The translations under genes were made by a program, and so were the position numbers. The notes below the pieces were generated by a model. The model worked only from the letters and a program-made list of their open reading frames with translations, did no database searches and was not told the origin of the DNA. 64,000 nucleotides of DNA, taken from Streptococcus vestibularis (lineage in GTDB: Bacteria > Bacillota > Bacilli > Lactobacillales > Streptococcaceae). Shown piece by piece: positions 16,789 to 26,781 of this stretch. The DNA is taken from positions 158,533 to 222,532 of the forward strand of contig JAABLG010000002.1 in NCBI GenBank assembly GCA_010604095.1, written 5' to 3'. How positions within the stretch are numbered: position 1 is the stretch's first letter; each line of letters starts with the position of its first letter.

Positions 16789-16824
16789 AAAAAGCTCATC
16801 CTTACACGCTAGAATGAGCTTTTT
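16789..16824 (-). terminator. Terminator of the RYKNGD micro-ORF array
   Basis: On the minus strand AAAAAGCTCATTC and GATGAGCTTTTT form an 11-12 bp stem followed by T residues. It ends the micro-ORF transcript before the rpsF promoter. The A run on the other side makes it potentially bidirectional. Confidence 0.88.
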
Positions 16825-16894
16825 AAGAATCTTCTATTGTCATCAGACTATTCCTTTTAGAATTTTTGTAAAAATATTTTTTCATAAGGAGGTG

Positions 16895-16930
16895 TCACTG
16901 TGTGTCACCATTTTTCAATCTAGCAATCAT
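16895..16930 (-). CDS. Micro-ORF 6 of the array: MIARLKNGDTQ
   Basis: An 11-codon ORF with GGAGGT 5-10 nt upstream of ATG. It has RLKNGD in place of RYKNGD. A complementary ACCTCC lies just behind its stop, so the ribosome binding site could be sequestered in a hairpin spanning the whole ORF. It is the last motif-bearing unit before the terminator. Confidence 0.6.
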   Translation of the reverse strand: MIARLKNGDTQ

Positions 16931-16982
16931 AGATTACCTCCATTAACTTAAAAAAGAATTGTAACTAAGTCACGATTTTCTA

Positions 16983-16988
16983 TTACAT
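16983..16988 (-). other. Orphan start: Shine-Dalgarno followed by ATG TAA
   Basis: The sequence AAGGAGTGATACCA followed immediately by ATG and a stop codon. The upstream 25 nt (AAAATAGCTTAAGGAGTGAT) recur nearly unchanged near 17355-17390 and, more diverged, at 17241-17270. It looks like a start site whose coding part has been lost, or a start-stop element. Confidence 0.5.
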
Positions 16989-17005
16989 TGGTATCACTCC
17001 TTAAG

Positions 17006-17065
17006 CTATTTTGTGCAATAACCTGAAGAGTCTCCATTTTTATAACGTCCTAGATTCATCATCAT
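17006..17065 (-). CDS. Micro-ORF 5 of the array: MMMNLGRYKNGD plus 7 residues
   Basis: A 19-codon ORF, GRYKNGD followed by the extension SSGYCTK; AGAGGTGA lies upstream of ATG. The stop codon lies in the repeated AAAATAGCT segment that follows other units, so the extension looks like a lost original stop. It is the only array peptide containing a cysteine. Confidence 0.68.
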   Translation of the reverse strand: MMMNLGRYKNGDSSGYCTK

Positions 17066-17126
17066 AGCAATCACCTCTGATTCTTATCATCTGGGACCCA
17101 TCTTCCTATTGACCACTCAATGAGAC

Positions 17127-17171
17127 TTATTTATCGCCGTTCTTATAACGACTCACATCAAACATCAACAT
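17127..17171 (-). CDS. Micro-ORF 4 of the array: MLMFDVSRYKNGDK
   Basis: A 14-codon ORF with GAGGTGA before the ATG (a second in-frame ATG is two codons later). SRYKNGD is encoded with codons different from those in units 1 and 3 (CGT TAT AAG AAC GGC GAT). Confidence 0.7.
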   Translation of the reverse strand: MLMFDVSRYKNGDK

Positions 17172-17226
17172 AAGCGTCACCTCGGTACTTTGTAACAAGA
17201 TTTAAGTATTAAATGCTTCCGATAAA

Positions 17227-17241
17227 TTATTCTACTCGCAT
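17227..17241 (-). other. Degenerate unit MRVE behind a conserved start region
   Basis: AAGAAGTGATATCC-ATG opens a four-codon ORF without the motif. The upstream segment resembles the other orphan start at 16983, so this is probably a decayed unit. Confidence 0.45.
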
Positions 17242-17275
17242 GGATATCACTTCTTAAGCCATCTTAAACAACAAC

Positions 17276-17314
17276 TTAAGTATCTCCATTTTTATATCTA
17301 CTAACATTTCTCAT
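17276..17314 (-). CDS. Micro-ORF 3 of the array: MRNVSRYKNGDT
   Basis: A 12-codon ORF; GTGAGGT lies about 8 nt before ATG. It carries SRYKNGD with codons AGA TAT AAA AAT GGA GAT. Confidence 0.72.
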   Translation of the reverse strand: MRNVSRYKNGDT

Positions 17315-17407
17315 GAGCTTTACCTCACTTTTTGACGTTAATCTTTTAAAATTTAGCTTGCGATTTCTGGTGGTATCACTCCCTTGTAGCTATTTTATGC
17401 GACTCTC

Positions 17408-17440
17408 TTAATCTCCGTTCTTGTAACGCCCTACTGTCAT
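17408..17440 (-). CDS. Micro-ORF 2 of the array: MTVGRYKNGD
   Basis: A 10-codon ORF, the shortest unit, with AAGGAGTG upstream. Codons of the motif are CGT TAC AAG AAC GGA GAT, differing from unit 1 at five of six codons while the amino acids are identical. Confidence 0.75.
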   Translation of the reverse strand: MTVGRYKNGD

Positions 17441-17504
17441 ACTGCTACACTCCTTAGAGACCAATTGTAAAGTTTTTGTTTTGCCTACTGTTTTATTAGA
17501 GAGC

Positions 17505-17546
17505 TCAGTCTCCATTTTTATACCTTGAAATATTGATCGTCACCAT
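17505..17546 (-). CDS. Micro-ORF 1 of the array: MVTINISRYKNGD
   Basis: A 13-codon ORF, the first behind the promoter, with a strong AAGGAGGT 8-10 nt before ATG. It ends in SRYKNGD. There is no signal peptide, so if the peptide leaves the cell it needs a dedicated exporter. The function is unknown; I do not recognise this family. Confidence 0.75.
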   Translation of the reverse strand: MVTINISRYKNGD

Positions 17547-17589
17547 GGCTACTACCTCCTTGATGAATCCTTATCTTCTTTACAGTTTT

Positions 17590-17618
17590 ATTATAATGTA
17601 AACGCTTACTTTTGTCAA
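17590..17618 (-). promoter_or_regulatory. Strong promoter with internal cre site for the array
   Basis: Minus strand TTGACA (17613-17618) and TATAAT (17590-17595), both consensus, are separated by the ideal 17 nt. The spacer is almost wholly a catabolite-responsive element, TGTAAACGCTTACT (plus strand 17597-17610), one base from the usual symmetric cre. CcpA binding here would block polymerase, so the array should be glucose-repressed. Confidence 0.85.
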
Positions 17619-21273: not shown

Positions 21274-24003
21274 TTATCTCTCCCTCACATTTTCAATATC
21301 TTGATCTGTAATTGTATTATAGTCAGTACTTCCTTCTCTGTTAACACGTGTTGAAACATATCTAAGCAATCTTTCATTAAAGTTTCTGACCCAGCGACCA
21401 TTACTATGGTCATTTGTTACCGAATAATTCTGGGTAACGACCTCGGCGTAAAGTGCCTCATTAACTTCATAATCTTGCTTATGAAGCCCTAACAAACCAA
21501 TCTGTACAATCTCTTCTGGCGTATAATCTTCAAAATCAAACGTTGTTGGAATGCGACTACGAAGACCTGAATTCGTCTCTAAAAATTCGGCCATTTCTTT
21601 GGTATAACCTGCAAAGATAATAACAATATCTCGTCTATGATCTTCCATAAATTTTAGAATCTCATCAATGGCTTCTTTACCAAAATCGTTTGCACCACCT
21701 GAGCTAAGTGTATAAGCTTCATCAATAAACAAAACTCCACCTAACGCACTTTCCAAGACTTCCTTAGTCTTGATTGCTGTATGACCAATGTAACCGCCCA
21801 CCAAATCGCTTCGAGAAACCTCGATAAACTTGTTCTGACTTATTACACCTTTTTGGTAGAGAATACTACCTACAATACGAGCGACCGTTGTCTTGCCTGT
21901 ACCTGGATTTCCCAAGAATAGAGAATGTAGCGTTGTATCATCTACAGTACCACCTTGCTCTGCACGTTTTTTATTAAACTCTGCCATGTCAATAAACTGT
22001 TTGACCTGTTCTTTGACTTTAGAAATACCAATCAAATTATCCAAAGTGACCATGGCATCTTCTTGTCCATCTACACCTTCTTTATATTTATCTTCTTCAA
22101 AGACTGCATCGATATCCACATTCATGATTGTCTCAATATCTTCTGAATCTTGCTCATTGACGCGGGCAGCAAACGTTTTAACTAATTTCTCATTTAAGTT
22201 ACGAATCCATCTACCATTGCTCTTATCAAGCGATACATCATAAGCACGTTTAACATGTTGAGCATAATAATCTGAATTTTCTAGTTTATAACCTCCTTTA
22301 GCAAGGAATGACTTACCTAGTTGGACAATTTCATCATCACTATAATCTTCAAATATAAAGGTATTTGGAACACGCGACTTTAGACCTGGATTAGTTTGAA
22401 GGAATTGCTCCATTTCTTTCGTGTAACCCGCAAAGATAATCATTATATCATCACGATTATCTTCCATATATTTCAAGATGGTGTTAATTGCTTCAATACC
22501 ATGATCTACGCCTTGTTTCTTATGCAGAGTATAAGCTTCATCAATAAATAAGATGCCACCTTTAGCCTTTTCTAATAAACGTTGAGTTTGTTCAGCAGTA
22601 CCGCCCACATTAGACGAAATCAAATCAGATTCTGTCGCTTCAACAAATCGGAAAGAATCGCCTGACAATACTCCATTTTGATAGAGAACCTCACCTAACA
22701 AACGAGCTACTGTAGTCTTACCTGTACCTGGATTTCCCATAAAAACAGAATGAAGTGTCTGCTTTTCAGGCGGTAATCCCTTTTCAATACGCTTTTTGTT
22801 GAAGTCAACCATACGAACCATCTTTTTAATCTCTTGCTTAACCTTATCAAGACCAACAAGATTATTTAGTTCCTCAAGAGCATTATTTTCATTTTCTTTC
22901 GGTTGAATCTGTACTTCGGAAGTTTCTAAAACATACTTACTATCATCGGAAATCTCATAATTTAAATCTGCGATATCTCCTTCGGGATAGCTCAGATTTT
23001 TTATTTGAAGATAGGAAGAACTCGACACACGACAGTTAGGCTCAACACTACGATGAAGGACTAAACAATCGGCAAAGATTGCACTGTTATCATTTAATTC
23101 TAAATCTATCTTTTCGCTGTTATTTCCAAGAAAATTAATCTCACCTCTAAAAACACCAAAAGATTTTTCGTTTAAGAGTATAATATCAGTAATTGTTGTT
23201 TGCTCTAAGTACACTTGACTTGAATAAGTATTTATTGACGTAATTCTGTCATTTTGAGACGAAAATAATACATTTTCAGACAAGTTAATTGAATTTATAT
23301 AGTTTGGTTGTACCATTGATGTCGACTCAGAAGCCCAGACAACATTTTCTAACCAAATCAAAGGAAGATTATTTTGAGTATTTCCACCTTTAATTGTTGA
23401 GCTTTTTACCGTTATTCTAGAGTCAGTAGCACAAATTGCATTTTTAGTATAATGCTCCAAGTGAACACTGTTCATCATCATTCTAGACCCTTGCTCTAAA
23501 TCTAATTGACCCAAAATTCTAGAATTTTCAATGATTAACTCTGAGGAAAAAACACCAACTGTCGTAGTTGAGCCATTAACCACCTTCATCCCTACTTCAT
23601 TCAGATGAAGCTTAGCGTTATTGCTTGCATAAAGTAAGAACTTCTCATTGTTTAAAATTTGCTCTTCAAAATAAATATTCGTACAAAAAACATCTGCCCC
23701 ATTTGTTACAGAAAGAGCAACTCTATTATCACTCGTTTTAAACCATAGATTTTCAAAGGTCACCTTCGCTCCATTTGTCACATCAAAATATGCGTTAAGA
23801 ACATTATGAAAAGTACTGTTACCTGCTTTCTTTTCCACGTGTCCAACAAAGTGTAGGTCCTTTTCAATTACCTGTACACTGAAAGATGGAAGCTCATATG
23901 TATATCCTTTATCAAACTCAATGATATCACCATTTTTAGCAGCATTGTAGGCATCAGTAAAATTCCAACAATTGCTACCTGTACCCACTAAATATCGTGC
24001 CAT
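21274..24003 (-). CDS. Beta-helix protein with two CbxX/SpoVK-type AAA+ domains, 909 residues
   Basis: The N-terminal region of about 370 residues consists of repeated short strands with Asn/Ser-rich turns, typical of a right-handed beta-helix (pectate-lyase-like). Two AAA+ domains of the CbxX/SpoVK/EccA type follow: Walker A GNPGTGKTTVARLLG near residue 423 and GNPGTGKTTVARIVG near 697; Walker B GGILFIDEAYTL and GGVLFIDEAYTL. Both ATP sites look intact. There is no signal peptide, so it is cytoplasmic. This fold is known next to type VII secretion and other systems, but no secretion genes are seen here. AGGAGGGG precedes the ATG. Confidence 0.88.
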   Translation of the reverse strand: MARYLVGTGSNCWNFTDAYNAAKNGDIIEFDKGYTYELPSFSVQVIEKDLHFVGHVEKKAGNSTFHNVLNAYFDVTNGAKVTFENLWFKTSDNRVALSVTNGADVFCTNIYFEEQILNNEKFLLYASNNAKLHLNEVGMKVVNGSTTTVGVFSSELIIENSRILGQLDLEQGSRMMMNSVHLEHYTKNAICATDSRITVKSSTIKGGNTQNNLPLIWLENVVWASESTSMVQPNYINSINLSENVLFSSQNDRITSINTYSSQVYLEQTTITDIILLNEKSFGVFRGEINFLGNNSEKIDLELNDNSAIFADCLVLHRSVEPNCRVSSSSYLQIKNLSYPEGDIADLNYEISDDSKYVLETSEVQIQPKENENNALEELNNLVGLDKVKQEIKKMVRMVDFNKKRIEKGLPPEKQTLHSVFMGNPGTGKTTVARLLGEVLYQNGVLSGDSFRFVEATESDLISSNVGGTAEQTQRLLEKAKGGILFIDEAYTLHKKQGVDHGIEAINTILKYMEDNRDDIMIIFAGYTKEMEQFLQTNPGLKSRVPNTFIFEDYSDDEIVQLGKSFLAKGGYKLENSDYYAQHVKRAYDVSLDKSNGRWIRNLNEKLVKTFAARVNEQDSEDIETIMNVDIDAVFEEDKYKEGVDGQEDAMVTLDNLIGISKVKEQVKQFIDMAEFNKKRAEQGGTVDDTTLHSLFLGNPGTGKTTVARIVGSILYQKGVISQNKFIEVSRSDLVGGYIGHTAIKTKEVLESALGGVLFIDEAYTLSSGGANDFGKEAIDEILKFMEDHRRDIVIIFAGYTKEMAEFLETNSGLRSRIPTTFDFEDYTPEEIVQIGLLGLHKQDYEVNEALYAEVVTQNYSVTNDHSNGRWVRNFNERLLRYVSTRVNREGSTDYNTITDQDIENVRER

Positions 24004-24111: not shown

Positions 24112-26781
24112 CTATACATGACGCCTACGAGTAGCTACTCCCGCAAGTCCAACCATCCCCAAACCTGCTAAGACGTAAACAGCTGTATCTGCTTCACCTG
24201 TTTGTGGTAGAGATGCTTGGTAGTCTGTTGCACCACGGCGATTTACCACTGCTTGTGTAGCTTCCACGGTAGCGTCTTGATTAGTAGAGACTTGTTCTAA
24301 CTTAGCTGATACTACATGAGCTTTCTCAACTTTTGGTGTTTTTTGGCTAATAGCTACTTGTGGTTTAGTTGCTACTACTGGTTTCACAGCTGGGTGATGT
24401 TGTTGCTCAGACTGGATTTCTGGCTTCAATTCAGGTTTTTTAGCTGGTTGCTCTACTTGTTTAGGAGCATCTACTTTGGTAACCTTAGTTCCAACATAAA
24501 CAACCTTTTCAACCATAGGTGTAACAACTTTAGTTTCACTTGATGTGATTTCCCCTGTTACAGGATCTAACTTATACGTAGTCGTTACTGTTGTGTAACC
24601 TCGTGAACCAACATGTTTGTCGTCTGCTTTTTCTACACCTTTATCAAGAGTTGCATCTTGAACATACTTGATAGCAGTAGGAATCACATCAGTAATAGCA
24701 GTTTTTGTCTTAGTTCCTTTAGTCACTACTTTATCAACAGCAGCAATATCAGATAAGACTTTTTCAACTGCTTCAGGTTTATTATCTTTCAAAACGTAGC
24801 TTGTGCGGATAACCTTTTCACCATTCTTACCACCAACTTCAGCAATATAACCAAAGTCCTTGCTGTCATCTGACTTATAGATAACTTTAAATGGTGTTGT
24901 TATTGTTTTTTCAGTAGGTTTAGCACCATAAACCACAAGACCATTTTGAACATCGGTTTTAGTGACAGTCTTGCTGTTTTTCATTGTAACTACAGCTGGG
25001 TCTTCGAAAAGCTTAGCGTATAACTTAGAATAGTAACCTGTCTCAGCTTCTGCAGTGAGTACTGGGCTATATGCTTCCGGGCTGTCGTATAAAAAATCTC
25101 CCTTAATTAACTTAATCGTATGGATTTTTCCATCTTTATCAGGACGATTAATATAGCGTTTAGGTTGGATACCAAAAATTCTTAGTTTAATGTACTCTCC
25201 TAAAGAATCTGCGAATGCTTCCATATTATTATCCCTTGTGTACTCCTCAACAACTTTATCTTTAAAGTAGGTATTATAGATTGCTTTAAATTCATCACTA
25301 TCAGAAAAACCAACAAGGTTTTTATCGCTAAGTCCAAGTAATTGATATCCGCTAGAAAAGTCAATTATATGAGATAATTCATGTAATACATTAGAAAACA
25401 TTACTCTAGGTTGAGTAACCGATACATTTGTTTTTTCAACAGCTAATTCTTTACCGTCCACTTCTTCTACTACATAAATAGGGTCAGTTAACTTACGGTA
25501 ATTTTTTAGTATAATATGCTTTGTATTCCCAAAGGCCGTTGCCCCAGCTGGAGTACCTTTATATGTTTTCTCTAATTGATTATCTGTTACAATCAATTTC
25601 AAAATATTTTGACGAATCGCAAGTGGTAATTTTTTTAGATTTGTTTCAAACTCTTCACGTTCTTCAGCGGTCATAGTTGGAGCAGTTGTGTAGTCAATTT
25701 TAGTTCCGTAATAACCTCTACTATTGTTATAGCGTTGTGTTATGGTATCAAATGCATTTTGAACAAATTGATAGTTTTTTTCTGCCCCATCATCCCATAA
25801 ATTACTACCTTGCTCTTGATCATTTTTTTTAATACGATTTGCCACATCTTGAGCACGCATAAAGGCTGCTTTGGCATCCGCATACATACCGTCAGTGATG
25901 TACTGACCAGAAAAATAACGTTTAATATCGTCAGAGTCGCTACTTTGAAGTGGTAAAATTTTTGAAAGGTATGAACCACTAGAAATATTATAAATTTTAC
26001 CAGCAACAGTATTGAAATATTTCATTTCGTCCGTCGCATCATAGTCAACTATGCCAGGATGAAATTTCGTTGGTTTATAATACTCCTGTGGTATAAACTT
26101 ATTCGTTTCCTTTGATACGACAAAAGCATACCCTGTTGATGCTAATTCACGAGGGGATTTCGCTGAATTCCTAAAATCGATTTTCTCCACCTCAGGAGTG
26201 AGATCCAAGTAAATCTTATCAATAACGATACGATCACTTGGGACTTCTTTACTGTTATCAATATGATAAAACTTCTCAGTCACATAACGGTTAGTGTCAT
26301 CTTTAACTCTTGGGTCAATAAGAGTGTCGAAGTCTGTTTGTTTAACTTCTGTTTTTTCTGTTGTCGTCGTTTGACCATCTTTAGCTTCTGAAACTACTTT
26401 AGTCACTCCAGCATCAAGATTTTCATCCAATCGATATTCCGTAGTTGCTTTAACAGTTTCTGTACTTGTTTTGCTATTCGTATCAACTCCTAGAAAAACA
26501 ACGTCTGATGATTGCTTAGAATCTGTTGTAGTAGTTGTCGATGTTGTAACAGATTCAACAGCTGGTGCACTAGCTGTTGTCACAGCTGTATTAGCCTCAG
26601 CAGGAGTTGATGTATTATCTCCTCCACTTGTAGCTACAAGCTCTGTAACTGGGTTCGTTGTTGTATCTACGCTATCCGCATGTACTACCAATGGAGTTCC
26701 TCCAATAATAGCCATTCCTAAAATAACAGAGCACAATCCAATTTTCTTTTTACGCAAAGAAAAAAGTTGCTTCTTTTTCAT
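24112..26781 (-). CDS. LPXTG-anchored zinc metalloprotease, ATLF-like
   Basis: An 889-residue surface protein. The N-terminus has the YSIRK-type signal (FSLRKKKIGLCSVILG) ending in VHADS. Low-complexity Thr/Ser regions follow. The catalytic core has HELSH at residues 467-471 and a downstream Glu521 in NMEAF, the zinc arrangement of anthrax-lethal-factor-like (ATLF) proteases. After a linker of Val/Thr-rich repeats come a Lys/Pro/Gln-rich wall-spanning region and LPQTG (residue 858), a hydrophobic segment and a basic tail for sortase anchoring. The substrate is unknown; ATLF relatives cut host or envelope proteins. Confidence 0.88.
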   Translation of the reverse strand: MKKKQLFSLRKKKIGLCSVILGMAIIGGTPLVVHADSVDTTTNPVTELVATSGGDNTSTPAEANTAVTTASAPAVESVTTSTTTTTDSKQSSDVVFLGVDTNSKTSTETVKATTEYRLDENLDAGVTKVVSEAKDGQTTTTEKTEVKQTDFDTLIDPRVKDDTNRYVTEKFYHIDNSKEVPSDRIVIDKIYLDLTPEVEKIDFRNSAKSPRELASTGYAFVVSKETNKFIPQEYYKPTKFHPGIVDYDATDEMKYFNTVAGKIYNISSGSYLSKILPLQSSDSDDIKRYFSGQYITDGMYADAKAAFMRAQDVANRIKKNDQEQGSNLWDDGAEKNYQFVQNAFDTITQRYNNSRGYYGTKIDYTTAPTMTAEEREEFETNLKKLPLAIRQNILKLIVTDNQLEKTYKGTPAGATAFGNTKHIILKNYRKLTDPIYVVEEVDGKELAVEKTNVSVTQPRVMFSNVLHELSHIIDFSSGYQLLGLSDKNLVGFSDSDEFKAIYNTYFKDKVVEEYTRDNNMEAFADSLGEYIKLRIFGIQPKRYINRPDKDGKIHTIKLIKGDFLYDSPEAYSPVLTAEAETGYYSKLYAKLFEDPAVVTMKNSKTVTKTDVQNGLVVYGAKPTEKTITTPFKVIYKSDDSKDFGYIAEVGGKNGEKVIRTSYVLKDNKPEAVEKVLSDIAAVDKVVTKGTKTKTAITDVIPTAIKYVQDATLDKGVEKADDKHVGSRGYTTVTTTYKLDPVTGEITSSETKVVTPMVEKVVYVGTKVTKVDAPKQVEQPAKKPELKPEIQSEQQHHPAVKPVVATKPQVAISQKTPKVEKAHVVSAKLEQVSTNQDATVEATQAVVNRRGATDYQASLPQTGEADTAVYVLAGLGMVGLAGVATRRRHV

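What the first reader, a model, noticed from the sequence alone, without database searches (positions are those of the whole stretch)
16789..17618. Tandem array of micro-ORFs encoding RYKNGD peptides: a candidate undescribed peptide system
Seen in sequence: on the minus strand one consensus promoter, six ORFs of 10-19 codons each with its own Shine-Dalgarno sequence, and a terminator. Five peptides contain RYKNGD and one RLKNGD; the N-terminal parts vary in length and sequence. The motif codons differ between units (Arg AGG, CGT or AGA; Tyr TAT or TAC; Lys AAA or AAG; Asn AAT or AAC; Gly GGA or GGC; Asp GAC or GAT), which indicates selection on the peptide and argues against a structural RNA repeat. 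Inference: the products could be signal peptides, decoys for a peptide receptor or import system, substrates of a modification enzyme encoded elsewhere, or a translational sensor. I know of no family with this motif.
Basis: partly seen in the sequence, partly recalled or inferred. Interest (0 to 1): 0.94.

Follow-up and report, generated by a model that had tools for sequence, protein, structure and literature searches.

The report
Tandem RYKNGD ribosome-pausing micro-genes
About a fifth of the streptococcal genomes searched carry a string of tiny genes, mostly 10-20 codons long and nearly all containing the peptide RYKNGD; the string is predicted to switch on when glucose runs out, and each tiny gene likely makes the ribosome pause at one fixed codon and so reshape the RNA behind it, an arrangement for which we found no description.

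Summary
The array is real. Six SD-led micro-ORFs (five RYKNGD, one RLKNGD) follow a perfect promoter whose spacer holds a CcpA cre-like site; a hairpin terminator ends the unit. RYKNGD is encoded nowhere else in this genome. Clusters of two to eight units occur in 58 of 284 Streptococcus genomes, S. mutans among them, mostly between mutY and rpsF with the same cre promoter. Codons vary while the peptide barely does, so the peptide is selected. Single RYKNGD micro-ORFs occur in other Firmicutes and in streptococcal bacteriocin cassettes, in 11 of 13 contexts just 5' of a gene for an exported or hydrophobic product. My best reading, untested, is a nascent-peptide pausing device that works like ErmBL; a trans-acting peptide is the main rival. 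Against it: no SD sequestration was found in single units, covariation is weak, and only about a fifth of array units carry the hairpin by strict detection. No paper found names the motif.

The parts
17590..17618 (-). sigma-70 promoter, perfect -35 and -10 hexamers, 17-nt spacer
   Evidence: 12 of 12; the same layout in 42 of 46 Streptococcus array loci by the pattern
17596..17611 (.). CcpA cre-like site in the promoter spacer
   Evidence: 1 mismatch to the cre consensus; conserved; binding not tested
17555..17585 (-). 5' leader TGTAAAG...AAGGAGG with the SD of unit 1; its start can pair with CTTTACA at 17466-17472
17505..17546 (-). micro-ORF 1 MVTINISRYKNGD
17466..17488 (-). conserved non-coding element GTAGGCA...CTTTACA after unit 1
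   Evidence: GTAGGCA within 260 nt of the promoter in 34 arrays; 39 arrays had a promoter by the same pattern
17408..17440 (-). micro-ORF 2 MTVGRYKNGD
17371..17407 (-). element B, degenerate copy (SD-like, no start codon, hairpin z only -0.4)
17276..17314 (-). micro-ORF 3 MRNVSRYKNGDT
17227..17280 (-). element B, degenerate copy ending in a 4-codon ORF (MRVE)
17127..17171 (-). micro-ORF 4 MLMFDVSRYKNGDK
17006..17065 (-). micro-ORF 5 MMMNLGRYKNGDSSGYCTK
16983..17029 (-). element B, intact: hairpin directly after the Asp codon, SD in its 3' arm, then AUG-UAA
   Evidence: z -2.5
16895..16930 (-). micro-ORF 6 MIARLKNGDTQ (RLKNGD variant)
16823..16843 (-). last short ORF MTIEDS, just before the terminator hairpin
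   Evidence: S. mutans has an SD-led MTL near its terminator (read from the sequence)
16789..16824 (-). terminator-like hairpin
   Evidence: not listed by the scan

Best explanation
This is a stand-alone transcript of tandem micro-ORFs, predicted to be repressed by CcpA, whose nascent RYKNGD peptides likely pause the ribosome at the Asp codon and so likely open the RNA hairpins that lie directly behind it. Shown from sequence: the tandem ORFs, the cre-like site in a perfect promoter, selection on the peptide, an abrupt fall of conservation after Asp, and hairpins or anti-SD words placed in the first 12-13 nt after Asp in a part of the units. Inferred: that RYKNGD slows the ribosome; that a ribosome held there covers the 5' arm and frees the SD in the 3' arm, letting a second ribosome sit on the AUG-UAA or 2-5-codon ORF; and that the result is a long-lived, ribosome-loaded RNA made when glucose is gone. 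In other Firmicutes the same single micro-ORF would act as a leader that holds a ribosome near the 5' end of mRNAs for exported, bacteriocin-like proteins.
For: Sharp boundary: information is 4.2 bits at Asp and 1.1 bits one residue later over 138 distinct peptides; tail pN/pS 0.63 against 0.041 in the core. In 34 distinct element-B hairpins the Asp-to-loop gap is 12-13 nt in 30 (hand count), about the reach of a ribosome with Asp in its P-site (footprint length recalled); 28 of 34 have z < -2, mean -3.9, against base shuffles. In 39 first units anti-SD words occur 0.61 per unit at +1..+12 after Asp and 0.24 per unit over all of +13..+72. Little decay: 150 of 154 distinct units have the exact motif, and an open scan found almost only single changes at Y, K or N and, among matches of four or more of six, none at R, G or D. 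Single units stand in leader position. Nearest precedent: ErmBL stalls at Asp10, Arg7 and Val9-Lys11 are critical, its C-terminal region is not needed for induction, and Asp, Glu and Gly stall best at that place (PMC8274638, abstract and passages; PMC4935803, passages).
Against: No ribosome data exist here. For 9 single units a ribosome modelled on RYKNGD raised access to the next SD by at most 0.06, and the SDs are not clearly more hidden than in shuffles, L037 apart; between successive array units most values did not move either, a few rose (largest 0.24 to 0.52 in L023). Only 34 of 172 distinct array segments carry element B by strict detection (a looser filter flags 59 of 143). The anti-SD peak at +1..+12 is a property of first units; the 104 other units have 0.23 there and 0.32 at +13..+24. 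RNAalifold on the MAFFT alignment predicted no pairs; on a hand-anchored alignment pairing beats all 1000 re-deals, but narrowly (295 against a maximum of 293), and double-sided changes do not stand out (15 against a mean of 11.2; 108 of 1000 reach it). Arg lies at codon 8 in 106 of 154 units, which a free 13-mer explains more simply. The opened SD serves a start-stop or tiny ORF, whose use is unexplained. Some decayed units exist (an SD-led SYKNSE remnant in S. mutans, read; two degenerate B copies in the window).
Confidence: 0.4

Rival explanations
1. The peptides act in trans: many copies give a high dose of a cytosolic or exported 10-13-residue peptide that binds a conserved receptor or enzyme, and tandem ORFs raise the dose.
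For: The array is self-contained and is not tied to one site (beside eno in S. sp. DD12, seen in L041 and L169, which are one genome; 5.5 kb from mutY in L168). Fixed length M+6+RYKNGD in 106 of 154 units. In three Streptococcus cassette types the single unit follows an ORF that looks Phr-like by eye (L161, L162, L163/L164); beside L162 lies a regulator with the RRNPP domain RNPP_C (32.1 bits, cut-off 26.5), beside L161 an HTH regulator.
Against: Tails after Asp run from 0 to 23 residues. No receptor gene is consistently adjacent. Hairpins at fixed distance from Asp and start-stop ORFs have no role in this reading. Copies show little decay although there are up to eight.
Confidence: 0.3
2. The RNA is the product: a CcpA-controlled regulatory RNA or sponge whose SD-AUG baits or TCTCC words pair with other RNAs, with the ORFs serving mainly to load ribosomes.
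For: Conserved non-coding elements: GTAGGCA in 34 arrays, a 5'/3' helix longer than in shuffles (mean 6.12 against 5.25, largest shuffle mean 5.74), element B. RosA, an RNA sponge in B. subtilis, is a comparison taken from a search listing (PMC8216469, title and start of abstract); its CcpA control is recalled.
Against: Synonymous sites in the motif vary freely while amino acids do not, so the peptide is under selection. A search for further copies of the bait in the own genome gave 15 hits at up to 3 mismatches, two of them in the array, against 4 for the reversed control, with no clear partner; the other hits were not followed.
Confidence: 0.15
3. The ORFs are precursors of a modified peptide (RiPP) or of an exported pheromone.
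For: Single units lie in bacteriocin and RiPP neighbourhoods.
Against: No leader-core layout, no modification enzyme recognised by eye beside the arrays; a radical SAM gene (L165) and a YcaO-like cluster (L161, by eye) were seen near single units only.
Confidence: 0.06

Closest known systems
ErmBL and other macrolide-dependent leader peptides (ErmCL, MsrDL)
   Same: Very short ORF, Asp as the decisive residue, an Arg a few residues before it, residues after the stall not needed (PMC8274638, abstract and passages; PMC4935803, passages).
   Different: Those precede one resistance gene and need a drug. Arrays have up to eight copies, no gene before the terminator, and a cre promoter.
TprA/PhrA and related RRNPP quorum-sensing bacteriocin loci
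   Same: Three Streptococcus cassette types carry a Phr-like ORF followed by one RYKNGD micro-ORF; TprA/PhrA is reported to be CcpA-controlled (PMC6753895, passages).
   Different: RYKNGD units have no signal peptide by eye, are not the PhrA peptide, and the arrays examined have no such regulator beside them.
SIP, the leaderless peptide signal upstream of speB
   Same: Leaderless micro-ORF just 5' of a gene for a secreted protein (SIP details recalled; PMC6565748 seen as title and start of abstract).
   Different: SIP is hydrophobic and single (recalled); RYKNGD is polar, tandem and spread over several orders.
PSM-alpha-type operons of tandem small peptides (recalled)
   Same: Polycistronic run of tiny ORFs, each with its own SD.
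   Different: PSMs are amphipathic secreted toxins; these are mostly 10-20 residues, polar, with an almost invariant hexapeptide.
CcpA-regulated dual-function RNAs and sponges such as SR1 and RosA (recalled, except the RosA listing)
   Same: Sugar-controlled small transcript with coding and/or non-coding parts.
   Different: No tandem ORFs with one motif and no start-stop cistrons known to me.

Membership tests
Nascent-peptide leader attenuators (ErmBL type) | short SD-led ORF with amino-acid-level conservation up to the stall codon and little after it | tested here: met
Nascent-peptide leader attenuators (ErmBL type) | RNA structure 3' of the stall codon that a held ribosome would open | tested here: inconclusive
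   met by layout in element-B units and many first units; RNAalifold found no consensus, covariation is weak, and most other units lack it
Nascent-peptide leader attenuators (ErmBL type) | a regulated gene directly downstream in the same transcript | tested here: not met
   the window array ends in a terminator-like hairpin before rpsF and the neighbouring gene varies between genomes; met only for single units elsewhere
Nascent-peptide leader attenuators (ErmBL type) | downstream SD hidden and freed by the stalled ribosome | tested here: not met
   nine single units; by layout only in element B
Nascent-peptide leader attenuators (ErmBL type) | ribosome stalling | not testable with these tools
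   needs toeprinting or ribosome profiling
RRNPP pheromones (Phr, PhrA, SHP) | precursor with export signal and cognate regulator next to it | tested here: not met
   by eye no signal peptide in the short polar units (no predictor run); regulators only beside some Streptococcus cassettes
Known structured RNA families | match to an Rfam model at its gathering score | tested here: not met
   only a tRNA in the window at gathering scores; best match in the array 29.5 bits against a gathering score of 45
CcpA regulon | cre site at the promoter | tested here: met
   by consensus pattern; binding and expression not tested here

The most novel reading that the evidence does not exclude
The array is a ribosome-parking RNA: on loss of glucose it holds ribosomes on paused RYKNGD ORFs and on AUG-UAA start-stop sites, making a regulator or reserve built from initiation sites, and the single units are the same parking module used as a 5' clamp that keeps bacteriocin mRNAs alive.
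Probability: 0.2. Interest if true: 0.95.

Novelty: categorically new. Interest (0 to 1): 0.87.

Why it matters
If the reading holds, a common genus that includes dental and veterinary pathogens uses tandem, almost gene-free ORFs as a sugar-controlled device whose working part is the paused ribosome. Even if only the peptide matters, it is an unannotated family below the usual length limits of gene callers, strictly conserved and recurrent at bacteriocin loci, and it can be tested at once because S. mutans carries a two-unit version. It would also give a natural drug-free candidate for an ErmBL-like stall and a natural case of AUG-stop cistrons.

Tried and rejected
Macrolide '+x+' motif (RYK): weakened, because RYSNGD units exist. 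SD sequestration ahead of single units: no support. Co-travelling partner gene: none recognised in the seven stretches. Long proteins with the motif: several single SYKNGD hits in Streptococcus are an ABC transporter N-terminus, and other hits lie in unrelated proteins or chance frames. Phages: only weak Serratia phage hits. Rfam: nothing near a gathering score. The Erysipelotrichaceae lipoprotein that begins MVSRYKNGD has relatives that begin MTSKYKK or MTSKYQK, so that copy may be chance; the micro-ORF before it remains. SMU.1862 in the S. mutans CcpA data: not shown to be the array. Core pN/pS is biased downwards, because units were picked with R, K and G fixed in the search pattern; the open scan is the fairer view; the 31 pairs are disjoint pairs out of 92. 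The census may hold a few chance ORFs. My first hairpin energy test used 25 hairpins and left out most of the weak ones; one search repeats it on all 34. Not followed: 6 of the 27 places outside Streptococcus, 2 of the 24 outside the order, and a lone match in G152.

Full report
What is there. The window is streptococcal: the array lies between mutY (plus strand) and rpsF-ssb-rpsR (minus strand) (gene names by eye and by tblastn between the loci). Genus identity follows because the genomes that the tool calls same genus include contigs of the same length as named S. equinus, S. gallolyticus and S. alactolyticus records with the same arrays. On the minus strand there is one perfect promoter with a cre-like site in its spacer, six micro-ORFs with SD-like words, a seventh short ORF (MTIEDS) and a terminator-like hairpin. 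The degenerate motif pattern occurs five times in the genome, all here, with none for the reversed pattern.

How widespread. In 284 Streptococcus genomes 104 have at least one match of the pattern, but several single matches are SYKNGD in an ABC transporter or chance. By hand count of the listings, 58 of 284 genomes have two to eight matches with neighbours within 700 nt on one strand; the reversed control never exceeds two per genome (its positions are not shown). Of 46 Streptococcus array loci examined (several genomes are in twice through two collections), 42 have a near-perfect promoter with a cre-like site by the pattern used, and 42 have MutY and/or RpsF encoded in the fetched stretch. 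Of the others, the array of S. sp. DD12 (G211) lies beside eno, one lies 2 kb and one 5.5 kb from mutY. Named hosts include S. equinus, S. gallolyticus, S. vicugnae, S. alactolyticus, S. macacae, S. saliviloxodontae and S. sp. DD12. S. mutans is included by inference: G111 matches 139 of 139 nt of an S. mutans sequence printed in PMC7521000 (passages read) about 530 bp from its two-unit array.

Outside the genus no clusters like this were seen in the order and class draws. In 395 genomes of the order, 324 of them not Streptococcus, 25 of these have 27 matches; I read 21 of the 27, and seven genomes have candidate RYKNGD micro-ORFs, one of them two. Five have a clear SD and ATG; in G579 the SD is weak and in G411 the start codon is unclear. 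In the class scan of 398 genomes, 359 of them outside the order, I read 22 of 24 matches and found one more micro-ORF. Further cases are an Anaerococcus prevotii plasmid and two closely related Erysipelotrichaceae/Firmicutes MAG contigs with two motifs each. No genome labelled same family but other genus was drawn, so close relatives such as Lactococcus were not shown to be covered.

The peptide is selected. Over 154 distinct micro-ORF sequences 150 have exactly RYKNGD; Arg uses six codons, Gly three, and the other residues both codons. In 31 disjoint pairs of related units pN/pS is 0.041 in the core, 0.35 in the N-terminal part and 0.63 in the tail; the core value is biased by the search pattern. 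An open scan for three to five matches of six found variants almost only with one change: K to R or S, Y to F or L, N to S or D; one doubtful RNQNGD unit; and, at three of six, sequences that look like chance. Preferences: Asn, Asp or His three before Arg; a hydrophobic residue two before; Gly, Ser or Ala just before; Arg at codon 8 in 106 of 154.

The RNA is conserved as well. After some Asp codons comes element B: in 34 distinct copies the loop begins 10-14 nt after Asp (12-13 in 30), then an SD, then AUG- or GUG-UAA in 20, a 2-5-codon ORF in 9, and no start codon in 5 (hand count on the listing). Strict detection gives 34 of 172 segments. Pairing on the hand-anchored alignment is 295 of 402 cells against a mean of 276.5 and a maximum of 293 in 1000 re-deals of arms, and 93-184 when slid; double-sided changes are not in excess. 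RNAalifold on the MAFFT alignment gave no pairs. Minimum free energies lie below base shuffles: mean z -3.9, 28 of 34 below -2. After first units, anti-SD words concentrate in the 12 nt after Asp; the other units do not show this. A GTAGGCA element lies near the promoter in 34 arrays, and a helix between the 5' end and CTTTACA is longer than in shuffles.

Single units. I took 13 contexts as independent: L153 twice, L154, L155 with L165, L156, L157, L158, L159, L160, L161, L162, L163 with L164 (and its copies L127 and L147), L037 with L042. Left out are Streptococcus loci with one exact motif in array-type surroundings (L048, L049, L056, L059, L130, L139, L146) and the out-of-frame copies (L060 and others). 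In 11 of the 13 the next gene encodes, by eye, a signal-peptide protein or a small hydrophobic peptide; the Anaerococcus one is broken by stop codons; the other two are followed by a Cys-rich RiPP-like peptide (L161) and a membrane protein (L158). No signal-peptide predictor was run. One next protein resembles lactococcin 972 weakly (TIGR01653, 16.7 bits, cut-off 32.1); of the eight exported-type proteins scanned none reaches a Pfam cut-off. Three Streptococcus cassette types carry a Phr-like ORF before the unit. A cre-like site beats 96% or more of shuffles in 6 of 17 stretches tested, two of them copies of one cassette.

How it may work. Conservation that ends at Asp, hairpins whose 5' arm fills the ribosome's reach beyond Asp, and a leader position elsewhere point to a ribosome held at Asp. 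ErmBL is the nearest precedent: it stalls at Asp10 with Arg7 and Val9-Lys11 critical, and its C-terminal region is not needed (PMC8274638, abstract and passages; PMC4935803, passages). Stalling itself is inferred. Against it stand the negative SD test in single units, the absence of a gene to regulate in arrays, the weak covariation, the many units without a hairpin, and the fixed 13-mer length. A peptide acting in trans is almost as likely.

Expression lead. RNA-seq of S. mutans lists SMU.1862 as raised in a ccpA mutant (log2 2.3 on glucose) and on galactose (log2 2.1), and reports an intergenic region with PredSmallRNA-204/205 whose expression changes with CcpA and, for 204, with sugar (PMC3610829, abstract, passages and section 18 read). 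The reads are not strand-specific. PMC7521000 places its sRNA0600, which lies near the array, between SMU_1862 and SMU_1865; that SMU.1862 or those RNAs are the array was not shown, and I did not see their coordinates. This is a lead only.

Novelty. Full-text searches for RYKNGD (0 papers) and YKNGD (4 papers, judged irrelevant from titles and abstract starts), and searches that combine Streptococcus with mutY, rpsF and small-RNA terms (0 papers, 6 papers seen as listings), found no description in the held open-access library. Subscription papers are not covered. The array fails two defining features of leader attenuators, so I do not file it there, though it may work like one.

Noticed in passing
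L060, L047, L050, L051, L053, L055, L062, L064, L141 (several Streptococcus genomes): The RYKNGD codons are intact but out of frame with the nearby SD-led ATG, with nearly identical DNA in all copies; in L060 they follow a phrA-like ORF. Broken unit or frameshift, not decided.
   Followed up: partly
L161 / L046 (G064): TprA-like regulator, PhrA-like ORF ending SNGLDVGKAD, a RYKNGD unit, then a short peptide with a CCCC-rich end and downstream genes that look, by eye, like a peptide-modification cluster.
   Followed up: partly
L175 3818-3956 (S. mutans, G111): sRNA0600 of PMC7521000 lies about 0.5 kb from the array on the opposite strand, at a 40-aa ORF.
   Followed up: partly
L037, L042: A thioredoxin-like lipoprotein of an Erysipelotrichaceae MAG begins MVSRYKNGD directly before its signal peptide, one cistron after a RYKNGD micro-ORF.
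   Followed up: yes
L166 about 770-870 (Macrococcoides plasmid): A lactococcin-972-like gene with a cre-like site at its promoter and no RYKNGD unit seen in the stretch read.
   Followed up: partly
window 21274-24003 (-) and 24112-26781 (-): A 909-aa protein with two AAA-type ATPase stretches, and an 889-aa protein with an HELSH motif and an LPQTG sorting-signal-like end (labels by eye).
   Followed up: no
L165 (Anaerococcus prevotii plasmid) and L155 (G561): Nearly the same response-regulator end plus MxYENPHRYKNGD unit in two distant genomes, suggesting recent transfer; transposase-like ORFs (by eye) lie next to the G561 copy.
   Followed up: partly
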